From Strigamia acuminata (Eukaryota; Arthropoda; Chilopoda; Geophilomorpha; Linotaeniidae), in assembly GCA_949358305.1 (NCBI GenBank), contig OX442324.1:3538001-3602000 (forward strand): a stretch of 64,000 nt of DNA. The letters run 5' to 3'. Below, one piece after another: positions 24,806 to 30,800 of this stretch (the stretch's first letter is position 1; the number at the start of each line of letters is the position of its first letter). Below the pieces are notes generated by a model. The model searched no databases, was not told the origin of the DNA, and saw only the letters and a program-made list of their open reading frames with translations. The position numbers were made by a program, and so were the translations under genes.

Positions 24806-27800
24806 ATGCTTTTTACCAGTCAGCGCCGGACTCCGCCTGTCAACAAGGTGAGGCCCCTTGTGCCTATATTGGCCCAATGTTGATCGTAGTAAGTTGAGTC
24901 ATTGCAGTTGCGCTTTCCACCACCTGGGCGTGTCCCCGGGCGTCGATTCCGGGACGGCCAAGGTATTTTGCACCGTTTTATTGTTTATTTTCTTTGAATC
25001 ATCATCTTGGTTTTGATATTTTTAGTGCCAGGCGATGAACTCTCGTTTGGTCTCGCGCGCCGTCGAGGGGCCATCAAACACCAGAAGGTTCACGAGGTCA
25101 AAGGGCACAAGTTTCTCGCCAAGTTTTTCCGACAACCAACTTTCTGTGCTTTCTGCAAAGATTTTTTATGGTTCGTTTCGTAGAAGATGAAAAAAATAAA
25201 AATTATTTATTTATTTTTATTTGATTTGATTTGTTTTCTGACATTTTTTGTAGGGGATTTGGAAAACAAGGGTATCAGTGTCAACGTAAGCAGATTTACC
25301 ATTGTGATATCATTGGTTCTATTTTGATGACTTATAAATTTGATTGTGCGCTTAGTATGCCAAGTGACGGTCCATAAACGGTGCCACGACAAAATCCTCG
25401 GAAAATGTCCAGGAAGTGGAAAGGAATCGCAATCCACGCTAGTCAGTTTTTTTTAAAAAAAAAAAAAATATTTTAAAATTTTTTTTTTTTAAAAACAAAA
25501 TGTAATTTAAAAAAATTTGTATTTTTTATTTTTCATTTTATTCGGTCAGTATTTGCGGGAACGATTCAAGATCGACGTGCCTCATCGGTTCCGCACGCAC
25601 AACTTTATGAGCCCGACATTTTGCAACCATTGCGGCTCCATGCTCTACGGACTTTTCCGACAGGGTCTCAAATGCGAAGGTAGGAACCCCCATTTCCTCA
25701 CAAAATTAAAAAAAAAAATTTAAAAAATGCAAATTGTGCGCACAGTTGACGCCATTTTTAGTTCCGCTCGCATAAATCGCGGCTAGCGCTCGCCTGATAC
25801 CGAACGCCAGTGTTTTCTCCAATCTAAACAGCTGTAACGTTTTATTTCGGTCTATCGCATGACTCAGTGCTGAGTTTATAAAAAAGACGAGATCCACGTG
25901 ATCGAAATCGCTGAGCTGCTGCGACGTCACGCGGCGTCTGGAATGCATTGACAAACCCACGTGGCTCACGGCCACACTTGGCAGCGGGGAACGGGTTTGA
26001 CCAAATTGGCGCCGCGCCAACCAGATCCAAACTTAGCAGCCCCGAAAACCAGGTGCTCAGTATCGCACCTGCCGCCGCATTATTCACATGTTTGGTCGCA
26101 AAGAAGCCGATCCCTACGGAAGGGCATTTCTGCCCTCACCGCTCGCCTCTTTCCGCCCGTTCCCGGACATTTTATCTCGCCCGGTCAGCTCCAGCCCGAT
26201 GTGGCCGTCGAGTCCTCACTCCAGTCCACTTCTCTCACGCCGAGAAACCTTCCTCACTTCTCCGATCTCCGCAATGACGCCCATCCCCTCGTGGAAACTC
26301 AATTCGTCGCCTCGGACCAACAGAAAACAACTCGTTCTCGACCCTTCCACGCTTGTTCCTCGAAGTCTGCCCATGGACCACACTTTTCGGGCCATGAGTC
26401 CCTTCAGCACGAGTCCTCTGCCGTCGCCGAACCTCGTCCGACGGCCCATAGTGCGCGTCTCGCGTCCGGCCTACAGAGACCTGTCCACTTACAACATGGA
26501 TCGGCCGCGCTCGCATTTCCCGCCCATCGAGCGCCAGGAGACGATGGGCATTCGTCGCGGGCGACAAGTTATTCGCATCAAATCGCGTGCCGCTGTCAAC
26601 ACTCCGTACGTTCCGCTCGCTGCGAAGACGCCGCGGAGGAACGGCCAGCAGGACAGGTGGAAAATCGATTGGGATCCGCCGTCGAAGAAGGGGCGAGGGG
26701 AGAAGGAAAAATCGAATTTGCCGCGCGAAAATTGCACGAGTGGAGAGGAAGTGGAGGCGGTGGAGACGGGGGACGACGTGGTCGCCACCTGGATCGAAAA
26801 TCCGGAGGACGTGGACGAGGGGATAACGAAGGTTTGTTTGCCGCGCCCACCTGTTCGTAAATATTCGACCGTGAAGCGACTGCACAGAGATGGGTCTATT
26901 ACGGTTCGTTGTTTCTTGCGGCTGCGGCCAAAAATATCGCACGATGTGGAACACACGTTCAACTTGCAACTGAATCGGGCCTCGCGTAATGACGACGCCG
27001 AAGTGGCTGAAGCGTCGTTTACGTTAGGGTTAAATGCGATTTTGAAAGGTGCGGATGAGAGCGTGATTAGAGAGGAGGAGGAGGGGCAGGAGGGGGAAGG
27101 CGAGGTGGAATGCGAAAACGCTTTTAATGTTTTTGAGACGTTTGATGTCATCAGCGTTGATAATATTGAAAAGACTTTAAGTGAGGAATTTGCGAGTAAA
27201 GATAGACGTGGAGGAAAGGAAAGGGGAAAAATAGAAGAAAATGGATTGCAAGAATTTGGGCTTAATTTAGAGTCGGAAGAAGGGGGTTATAAATTGAGTG
27301 TGAAACCGGAAGAAAGCAATGTGCAAAGGGGATTGAATTCTTGCGAGTTTAATTTGGACGGTTCGAGGATGGGAGAAACGAATTTGTCACGTTTTGTTGG
27401 CGGGGGAGAAGATGGTGACAAGTTTGGTTTTGATGAGTTGCAATTGAGGAATGGAGAGCGCGGTTTTGGAGATGCCAATATTAAGGGAGAAGAAGAAAAA
27501 GAAGAAGAAGAAGAAGAAGAAAGGTTTTTGATGTGTGGAATTAGAGATGTTGTTTCAGTGAGGCGCACGAGTTCGGAGAAGTTGAAGTTGGTGGAGGAGA
27601 AGGTTTCGGGGGACGGGAGGATTGAAGGGAGAATGTTTAGTAGTTTGAAGATGGTAGAAGAGGAGAAAGTTGTTGTTAGAAGGAAAGAAGGTGGAAAGAG
27701 GTCAGAGGATGTGAAGGAATCGGAAGAGAGGAGGGTTGCTGAGGGAATAAAATTAGGTGGAACGATGCAGCAAGAAGGTAAATTAGAAGCGGGAAGAGTG

Positions 27801-30800
27801 ATAGATTTAAAGAAGGCGGAAGAGAGGAAAGTGGAAAAAAAGAGAAAAGCTGCAGATGAGAGGAAAATCGCAGAAAATAAAAAAATCGCAGAGGAGAAAA
27901 AAATCGCAGAGGAAATAAAAATCGCAGAGGAAATAAAAATCGCAGAGGAAATAAAAATCGCAGAGGAGAAAAAAATTGCAGAGGAAATAAAAATCGCCGA
28001 GAAAAGAAAAATCTCAGAAGAGAGAAGAATCTTAAAAGAGAAAAAAATCGCAGAAGAGAAGAAAATCGCAGAAGAGAAAAAAATTGCAGAGGAGAAAAAA
28101 ATCGCAGAGGAAATAAAAATTGCAGAGGAGAAAAAAATCGCAGATGAAATAAAAATCGCAGAAGAGAGAAGAATCGCAGAAGAGAATAAAATCGCAGAAG
28201 AGAAAAAAATTGCAGAGGAAATAAAAATCGCAGAAGAGAGAAGAATCTTAAAAGAGAGAAAAATGGCAGAAGAGAAAAAGATTGCAGAGGAGAAGAAAAT
28301 CGCAGAAGAGAAGAAAATCGCAGAGGAGAAAAAAATTGCAGAAGAGAAGAAAATGGCAGAGGAGAAAAAAATCGCAGAGGAGAAAAAAATCGCAGAGGAG
28401 ATAAAAATCGCAGAGGAGATAAAAATCGCAGAGGTAGGAACAATTGCAGGGGAGATAAAAATCGCAGAGGTGAGAAAAATTGCAGGGGAGATAAAAATCG
28501 CCGAGAAAAGAAAAATATCAGAAGAGAGAAGAATCTTAAAAGAGAGAAAAATGGCAGAGGGGAAAAAAATTGCAGAGGATAGAAAAATTGCTGAAGAGAA
28601 AAATCTTGCAGAGGAGAAGAAAATCGCGAGAGAGAGAAAAATTGCTGAAGAGAAAAAAATTGCAGAGGAGAAAGAAATCGCAGATGAAAGAAAAAACGCA
28701 GAGGAGAAAAAAATTGCAGAGAAAAGAAAAGTTTCGGAAGAGAGAAAAATATTAAGAGAGAGAAAAATCTCTGAAGAGAAAAAACCTGTTGAGGAAAGAA
28801 AAATTGTAGAAGAAACAAAAATCGCAGAGGAGAAAAAAATTGCAGACGCGATAAAAATTGCTGAAGAGAAAAAAATGCCAGAAGAGAAAAAAATTGCAGA
28901 GGAGAAAAGAATCGCAGAGGAAAAAAGAATCGCACAAGAGAAAAAAATCGCAGAAGAGAGAAAAATTGCTGAAGAGAGAAAAATTGCTGAAGAGAAAAAA
29001 ATTGCAGAAGAGAAAAGAATCGCAGAAGAGAAAAAAATCGTAGAGGAGAAAAAAATCGCAGAAGAGAAAAAAATCGCAGAGGAGAAAAGAATCACAGAGG
29101 AAATGAAAATCGCAGAGGAAATGAAAATCGCAGAGAAAAAGAAAATTGCAGAGGAGACGAACATCGCAGAGGAAGAGAAAATCGCAGAGGAGGAAGGAAT
29201 CTCAGAGGAAGAGAAAATCGCAGAAGAGGAAGGAATCTCAGAGGAAGAGAAAATCGCAGAGGAGAATAAAATTGCTTTAGAGGAAAAAATCGCAGAAATG
29301 AAAAAATTTGCAGCGGAGAAAAAAATTGCATATGAGAAAAGAATGATAGAGAAAAGAAGAATCTTACGAGGGAGAAAAATCCCAGAAGAGAAAAAAATGC
29401 CAGAAGAGGAGATAAAAGTCGCAGTGAAAAGAAAAATGTCAGAAGAGAGAAAAATCGCAGAGAAAATTGAAACTATCGACAAAATTGACGAAGAACCCGA
29501 AATTCCAAGCTCTGAAAATGCAAAAGAAGCGGATGAAAAATGGCACGAAACAATTACTCAAGCAAATGATACAGAAACATCATTAACAAGTCAACAAAGC
29601 AATAAAAGCCAACTCGAACAACACGCAGCCATAAAACCAAGTGTCAACAACGAAAAACACAATACAACACCGACCGACGTCACGCCAAGCCTGGAAGAAG
29701 GTAGAAACTAATTGGAAGGAAAGCCCAGCCCTAATTTGCAATGTTGTCTAGCATTTATTCGCCTTTTTTAACACATTGACGTCACTACACGTGCTTGACT
29801 CGATCGTTTCTATTTTGTATTTTAGTGTGTGGCGTCAACTGCCACCATAAATGCGAGAAACAGATGCCAAATCTATGCGGAGTCAACGAGAAGTTGTTGG
29901 CTGAAGCTTTGTCTTCAGTCAAACGGGGTATACGAGACTAATTTAGATGCGGAGCAAAGTCCAATAAAAGCTTCCAAATTTCTTTTCAGGGCCCACGCTC
30001 AGCAATAACACTTGTACCGTATCGGAAGAAAAATTTAACTCGTTAAATGAACCAGAATCTAGCTTGGATCACACACAGCCCACGCAGAAGCAAACCAGGC
30101 TTCGTTTCCGAAAATATAATTTTAAAGATTTCACGCATCTTAAAATGCTCGGCAAAGGCAGCTTTGGAAAAGTAATTTTTTAATTTTTTAATTTTTAAAA
30201 TTTTTTTTTTATAATTTTTTTTTTTTTTTAAATTATTATTATTATTTTTTTTTCAGGTGATGTTAGCAGAGTTAAAGAACTCCGGGGGACGATTGTTTGC
30301 TATAAAATGTCTTAAAAAAGACGTGGTGTTAGAAGACGACGATGTTGAGTGTGCTGTCGTTGAGCGTAAAGTATTGGCACTCGGATCAAAGCAACCTTTT
30401 CTTTGCAGTTTATTCTGCACTTTCCAAACCGAGGTTAGGTTTTGGCATGATTTGAAATGGACTTTGTTTGTCTGATATTGTTTATTTTTAGGCACGGTTA
30501 TTTTTTGTGATGGAATATTTAAGTGGAGGAGATTTAATGCACCACATTCAGTTGTCTGGACGTTTCGATCAGGAGAGATCGAGGTGAAATTCTAGAAATT
30601 GAATAGAAATGATAATTAAAATGAAATAGAATTTTTATGCTAATTCATCTGTTTGGATAGATTTTATGCAGCTGAAATAACATCAGCGCTCATCTTTTTG
30701 CACAAGAAATGCATTATCTACAGGTGAATTTAATGTTTGACATCTTTTTTTTTGTGCTGTTTTAAATGTTTTATATATTTAATTCCTAGGGATCTGAAAC

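What the first reader, a model, noticed from the sequence alone, without database searches (positions are those of the whole stretch)
25680..29825. A giant in-frame exon hidden in a PKC intron could make a roughly 1,600-residue kinase isoform
The intron that splits the C1B domain contains a 1,207-codon ATG frame on the same strand. Its last codons carry a donor (GAAG|GTAGAA at 29700) in phase 1, the same phase and almost the same context as the normal upstream donor (GAAG|GTAGGA at 25679). Splicing to 29826 therefore keeps the kinase in frame and yields [11 protein letters not shown] at the junction in both forms. The isoform would lack the pseudosubstrate, C1A and the first half of C1B, so it should be uncoupled from diacylglycerol and autoinhibition. 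It would instead carry a Pro/Ser-rich head and a long charged helix.
Basis: partly seen in the sequence, partly recalled or inferred. Interest (0 to 1): 0.87.

Follow-up and report, generated by a model that had tools for sequence, protein, structure and literature searches.

The report
Giant-headed arthropod protein kinase C isoform
An arthropod protein kinase C gene very probably makes a second, much larger form in which the usual on/off-switch domains are replaced by a giant flexible head, and the same swap is found in crustaceans, ticks and insects, so a little-noticed kinase seems to be shared across arthropods.

Summary
The window holds a novel PKC (delta type) gene whose other 13 modelled introns are 58-108 nt. 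The intron splitting C1B is 4,146 nt and carries a 1,207-codon frame under protein-level constraint, with a phase-1 donor at 29700. Spliced to 29826 it gives a 1,614-residue protein with an intact kinase and no pseudosubstrate, C1A or first half of C1B. The decisive new evidence is comparative. Searching with the kinase part under a length filter listed 120 rows; 117 are long PKCs (894-2,503 aa) of water flea, ticks, decapods, copepods, springtail and insects. 113 of 117 lack a complete C1. In 8 of 19 short/long pairs the junction is the window's. The window's head carries the motif found in 99 of 117 heads. So it is an ancient, annotated but apparently undiscussed PKM-like isoform, probably from an internal promoter. 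No RNA from this species was available; constitutive activity, promoter and head function are inferred.

The parts
24806..25679 (+). Modelled canonical 5' exons of the delta-type PKC (24806-24847, 24908-24962, 25026-25170, 25254-25285, 25356-25441, 25550-25679): pseudosubstrate-like ARRRGAIK, C1A, first half of C1B; skipped by the giant isoform
   Evidence: Splice model read by hand and translated; C1 hits; similar to PKC sequences. The first two exons are the least certain.
25680..29825 (+). Intron of the canonical form, 4,146 nt; the other 13 modelled introns are 58-108 nt
25877..25882 (+). TATAAA, candidate core of an internal promoter, 211 nt upstream of the ATG
   Evidence: a motif match only, no start-site data
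26088..29700 (+). Coding part of the giant alternative first exon (head, 1,204 whole codons plus one base)
26550..26591 (+). Conserved head motif [14 protein letters not shown] (residues 155-168 of the frame)
   Evidence: Top hit of 2,006 six-frame segments of the window with a profile built only from other species' heads, E=0.0036; 0 of 1,000 shuffles as good
27852..29462 (+). 18-nt (hexad AEEKKI) coding tandem array, about 89 copies
29701..29706 (+). Alternative donor GTAGAA (after AAG at 29698-29700), phase 1; the frame's stop codon is 29709-29711
29826..29927 (+). Shared 102-nt exon with the second half of C1B; phase 1 at both ends, so it may be included or skipped in frame
29990..31612 (+). 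Shared linker, kinase domain and C-terminal tail exons, to TGA (29990-30171, 30257-30433, 30492-30583, 30661-30723, 30790-30928, 30994-31182, 31256-31396, 31466-31612)

Best explanation
The giant frame is an alternative first exon of the delta-type novel PKC gene, probably transcribed from a promoter inside the C1B-splitting intron. It splices in phase to the downstream PKC exons (29826, or by skipping the symmetric 102-nt exon, 29990). The product is a kinase with an intact catalytic domain whose autoinhibitory and diacylglycerol-binding region is replaced by a long, probably mostly disordered head with one conserved basic-hydrophobic motif and, here, a 1.6-kb charged repeat. SHOWN: the frame, its coding constraint, in-phase splice sites, kinase motifs, the same architecture in annotated proteins of other arthropods with the same junction in part of them, and the shared motif. 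INFERRED: transcription of this copy, the internal promoter, insensitivity to DAG and release from the pseudosubstrate, and a role of the head in placing the kinase or gathering partners.
For: Frame and phase. Coding constraint. Donor quality and lack of a poly-A signal before 29826. Long PKCs: 117 of the 120 listed rows (5,470 proteins matched; P0121, P0130 and P0134, a fish PKC and two camel PKN1, were set aside before counting); 4 of the 117 have a complete C1; 66 carry the half-C1B signature, 3 of those being among the 4. Nineteen short/long pairs (18 share the contig length, Onthophagus goes by species name): in 8 of 19 (Daphnia, Haemaphysalis, Ornithodoros, Pieris, Danaus, Scylla, Colias, Vanessa) the identical part begins at the half-C1B, as in the window; in 10 it begins further downstream; in 1 (Macrosteles) it cannot be judged by suffix. 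All 12 listed rows from unnamed assembled contigs (4.9-8.4 kb) are nearly as long as their contigs allow: in 9 of 12 only 109-841 bases are left over for UTRs and introns together, in the 3 tick-like ones 2,118-4,263; this is what spliced transcripts would give, though I could not read the contigs. Motif: 99 of 117 heads carry it; a looser pattern occurs 71 times in the first 450 residues of the heads and never in the 86,728 residues beyond. The window's giant frame is the best of 2,006 segments, 0 of 1,000 shuffles of its first 330 residues score as well, and 19 heads match those at E<1 against at most 8 for 200 shuffles. The head is single-copy in the own genome (one place found).
Against: No RNA, start-site or protein data for this species. 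A direct search with the head alone found no homologue (7,383 candidates, none at E<=0.001), and phmmer of the head against the 117 other heads found none. Sequence support for head homology rests on one short motif; 4 of 200 shuffles reached the single best BLAST score. The profile's seed region was chosen after BLAST had pointed to it, though R210 of the motif is also nearly invariant in an alignment without the window. Codon scoring favours the frame in the first 470 codons (0.114 against at most 0.015 in the other five frames) and weakly in the array, but not in the short tail 29476-29708, where another frame with stops scores slightly better (-0.255 against -0.269). 51 of 117 long forms do not show the half-C1B signature: they join elsewhere or my pattern misses them.
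Confidence: 0.9

Rival explanations
1. The frame is an independent gene nested in the intron, ending at the TAA at 29709, not joined to the kinase.
For: It has its own ATG, a TATAAA and a stop; AATAAA at 29963 could end such a transcript.
Against: No AATAAA/ATTAAA between the stop and 29826; the 29963 signal would require reading through a PKC exon. A fitting phase-1 donor lies just before the stop codon. Long heads are annotated fused to the kinase in other arthropods.
Confidence: 0.05
2. The frame is a cassette exon spliced from upstream PKC exons, giving a long protein with C1A kept and C1B interrupted.
For: The open frame extends upstream of the ATG to 26037, and 4 of 117 long relatives keep a complete C1.
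Against: 113 of 117 long relatives have no complete C1. I saw no acceptor with a clear pyrimidine tract in 26037-26087 on reading (not scored).
Confidence: 0.04
3. An accidental open frame in a GC-rich stretch plus a purine-rich minisatellite, with no protein product.
For: The genome has other tandem arrays; a purine-rich array has few stops; a second frame is open for 299 codons in the GC-rich part.
Against: Codon-position bias and absence of stops in the array; simulations; the other arrays listed in the window have periods 41, 20/40/60, 37, 20 and 51, only the last a multiple of three besides this one of 18; conserved motif.
Confidence: 0.01

Closest known systems
Long 'protein kinase C delta type / uncharacterized / titin-like' proteins in arthropod annotations (e.g. 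P0122 Daphnia carinata 894 aa; P0123 and P0125 ticks about 1,400 aa; P0143 Cherax; P0195 Gryllus)
   Same: Same kinase, no complete C1 in 113 of 117, the same junction in 8 of 19 pairs, the same motif in 99 of 117 heads
   Different: Head length and repeats differ widely (426-2,096 aa); the charged AEEKKI array stands out (highest 150-residue charge fraction 0.64 against at most 0.57 in the 117 others)
PKM-zeta (vertebrate Prkcz, internal promoter in an intron; PMC3517905, passages read)
   Same: Internal start within a PKC gene yields the catalytic domain without the regulatory domain
   Different: Atypical PKC, started at a hinge methionine; the paper places the origin of this route in early vertebrates. 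Here it is a novel (DAG-dependent) PKC with a 1,204-residue new head, half a C1B, and an arthropod distribution
PKC-delta catalytic fragment made by protease (recalled; one search lists papers using the term, none read)
   Same: A delta-type kinase freed of its regulatory half
   Different: Made by cleavage, no new head

Membership tests
Novel delta-type PKC gene | Two C1 domains and AGC kinase with C-terminal tail | tested here: met
   best named relatives are delta-type PKCs of arthropods
Novel delta-type PKC gene | N-terminal C2-like domain (PF21494) | tested here: inconclusive
   None in 20801-25200 at E<=0.1; own-genome search blank but so were all 14 controls; many insect short forms are listed without it
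Arthropod giant-headed delta-type PKC isoform | Head joined in frame to the half-C1B or a following exon | tested here: met
   Donor, acceptor and phase by sequence only; same junction in 8 of 19 pairs
[quoted passage not shown]
   modest E-value 0.0036
Arthropod giant-headed delta-type PKC isoform | Transcript observed | not testable with these tools
   No RNA data for this species; transcript-like contig lengths only in relatives
PKM-type isoform | Catalytic domain without pseudosubstrate and working C1 | tested here: met
   Fused frame contains only the second half of C1B; glycine loop, lysine, YRDLKLDN, DFG, activation-loop, turn and hydrophobic motif sequences present
PKM-type isoform | Internal promoter | tested here: inconclusive
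   TATAAA at 25877, no start-site data
PKM-type isoform | Persistent activity without second messenger | not testable with these tools
   needs an enzyme assay
E-K(i+4) single alpha helix | Enriched E to K/R i+4 pairs | tested here: not met
   3 against 47 in shuffles

The most novel reading that the evidence does not exclude
Since the last common arthropod ancestor, the delta-type PKC gene has been two kinases in one: a DAG-switched enzyme, and a second one made from an internal promoter in which a giant disordered head, with a conserved R-x-R-x-V-[VI]-R motif whose would-be phosphoacceptor position is T, P, A or Q in 94 of 100 copies, replaces the pseudosubstrate and C1 domains and supplies a new kind of autoinhibition or anchoring.
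Probability: 0.3. Interest if true: 0.82.

Novelty: new variant of a known kind. Interest (0 to 1): 0.66.

Why it matters
Knockouts and RNAi of Pkc-delta in flies and other arthropods may hit one or both of two very different kinases, and phorbol-ester or DAG logic should not apply to the giant one (inference). The isoform sits in databases under names such as 'titin-like', 'proteoglycan 4-like' or 'PRP4 homolog', so its conservation is easily missed. It would be a PKM-like kinase made by gene architecture, from a novel PKC, in arthropods; the review whose passages I read places the internal-promoter route in vertebrates.

Tried and rejected
Searching with the head alone: no homologue in the protein collection; Pfam only below the curated cut-off (whole frame: LED_rpt 45.1 bits against 59; head: FimV_N 13.5 against 27); PDB nothing significant (best E=0.74). 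Single alpha helix of the E-K(i+4) type: rejected by pair counts. Idea that the head motif docks as a new pseudosubstrate: the AlphaFold2 model of the Daphnia long form (P0122, 42-row alignment) is of low confidence (mean pLDDT 50.3) and leaves the motif region (residues 191-220) at pLDDT 30-37, so no support and no refutation. C2 domain in the canonical form: not found near the gene; genome-wide search uninformative. Another C1-bearing locus (L007, 3.1 kb) as a place for a similar giant exon: it holds a 20-nt minisatellite instead; only this one locus was looked at. Literature: ten searches of an open-access library showed, in the titles and abstract starts listed, no paper that describes this isoform; two of them matched far more papers than were listed (15 of 636, 20 of 6,355). 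The decapod PKC survey PMC12608923 (abstract, section 2.3 and passages seen) reports canonical domain structures for brachyuran PKCs; PMC11524582 and PMC6686927 (passages) do not mention it in what I saw. Most subscription papers are not held, so this is weak evidence that it is unpublished.
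Full report
What is there. The window carries a gene for a delta-type novel PKC on the + strand. I modelled 15 exons by hand, 24806-31612. The protein (573 aa) matches PKCs of known structure, and its best named relatives are arthropod delta-type PKCs. A maximum-likelihood tree of 34 kinase domains (the window and 33 of 35 relatives picked; two were dropped because the start pattern failed) puts the window beside the copepod, Daphnia, springtail and insect rows with 84/80 support, below the tool's starred level, so it is an arthropod probably near or within the pancrustaceans.

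The intron. Thirteen of the 14 modelled introns are 58-108 nt; the one that splits C1B after K-C-E is 4,146 nt. It holds the 1,207-codon frame 26088-29711. The frame is coding. Simulated sequences never approached its length. Its first 470 codons fit the codon use of the PKC exons and a kelch-like frame better than the five other frames do (0.114 against at most 0.015 per codon), though the margin is modest; in the part of the array scored the frame is also the best of six but all are negative, and in the short tail 29476-29708 it is not the best (-0.269 against -0.255). In the 18-nt array (27852-29462) the 87 units examined differ mostly at third codon positions (47/77/133) and contain no stop where 13.8 would be expected. 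The units are not independent, since an array grows by duplication, so I take this as direction, not as a probability.

The splice. The frame runs open up to AAG|GTAGAA (29698-29700|29701), phase 1, and its stop codon starts at 29709. Joined to 29826 it gives 1,614 aa with no internal stop. The exon 29826-29927 is 102 nt and phase 1 on both sides, so joining to 29990 also keeps the frame (1,580 aa). Relatives show junctions at the half-C1B and junctions further downstream.

Relatives. Searching with the head alone gave nothing. Searching with the kinase part of the fused protein, which limits candidates to lengths of about 890-2,820 aa, gave 5,470 proteins, of which 120 were listed. I set aside three (a fish PKC and two camel PKN1) and kept 117. 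The names given cover Daphnia, ticks, shrimps, crayfish, lobster and crab, copepods, a springtail and many insects. 113 of 117 have no complete C1. Head lengths are 426-2,096, median 1,176. The list is ranked by similarity to a query that contains the half-C1B, so forms with it are over-represented at the top; 66 of 117 show it.

One gene, two forms. For 19 species I paired a short form with a long form: 18 pairs share the contig length, among them Gryllus, which also shares the locus tag; one pair (Onthophagus) rests on the species name. In 8 of 19 the two proteins become identical at the half-C1B, the window's junction. In 10 they become identical further downstream. In Macrosteles a one-residue difference near the C-terminus hides the point, though its long form does carry the half-C1B. 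The 12 listed rows from unnamed assembled contigs sit on contigs of 4.9-8.4 kb; in 9 of 12 only 109-841 bases remain beside the coding sequence. A kinase cut by many introns in the genome should fit so tightly only as spliced RNA (inference; I could not read those contigs).

The head is homologous. BLAST of the window's head against the other heads hits the same place in many of them, the best at E=0.004. A profile built from other species only (100 domains in 99 of 117 heads) ranks the giant frame first among 2,006 six-frame segments of the window, E=0.0036, next 2.2; none of 1,000 shuffles of the first 330 residues scores as well (14.6 against at most 5.2). Against this, phmmer found no head match, 4 of 200 shuffles equalled the best single BLAST score, and the seed was picked after seeing the BLAST result; but 19 heads match at E<1 against at most 8 for any shuffle, and the motif's R210 is nearly invariant in the alignment without the window. 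Ten tick or tick-like rows and eight others lack a profile match. By eye the tick head P0125 keeps a weaker version (RRESMGVITRHRHMVKF), which I did not test.

How it most likely works. A promoter inside the intron (TATAAA at 25877, a motif only) starts a transcript whose first exon is the giant one. The product has the catalytic domain with the glycine loop, lysine, YRDLKLDN, DFG, activation-loop, turn and hydrophobic motif sequences, but only four of the eight metal ligands of C1B (my count from the sequence, using the recalled C1 pattern) and no pseudosubstrate. It should therefore not answer to DAG and should be active once phosphorylated, as PKM-zeta is (PMC3517905, passages). The head is predicted disordered in the Daphnia relative and probably places the kinase or gathers partners. 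The conserved basic motif looks like a PKC-type basic site (my reading of the recalled consensus) whose acceptor position is T 40, P 33, A 14, Q 7 of 100 and Q in the window. A pseudosubstrate-like role is possible but has no structural support.

Verdict. It is present in automatic annotation, so it is not new as a sequence object. I found no description of it as a conserved PKM-like kinase in ten literature searches of an open-access library (listed in Tried and rejected, with the listings' limits), which is weak evidence of absence.

Noticed in passing
window about 24254-24394 + (LAMTOR5 match): A LAMTOR5-like gene (PF16672, E=8e-8, 32.7 bits against a cut-off of 27) lies on the same strand just upstream of the PKC gene, possibly a compact or operon-like arrangement.
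   Followed up: no
window 22922-23014 and 23332-23407 +: Two tRNA genes: one with an odd anticodon call that may be intron-containing, and tRNA-Val(CAC).
   Followed up: no
window 36898-38442 -: A 514-aa frame that reads like a BTB/kelch protein (by eye, no domain search).
   Followed up: no
window about 35431-35893 +: Exons reading like a Rho-family GTPase (by eye, no domain search).
   Followed up: no
window about 14000-20820 +: Exons reading like a FoxP forkhead gene upstream of the LAMTOR5-like gene (by eye only).
   Followed up: no
window 46471-47185: A very regular 20/40/60-bp tandem array, 96-98% matches.
   Followed up: no
L007 1997-2505: A 20-nt minisatellite beside another C1-bearing locus of the same genome; a chance frame of 251 codons runs over it on the opposite strand, a useful contrast to the coding array.
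   Followed up: partly
P0136, P0154, P0178, P0193 and other insect heads: A second conserved block, TPGE-x-L-x-EK-x-x-I-x-[DN]K, follows the motif in insect heads; not seen in the window's head by eye.
   Followed up: no
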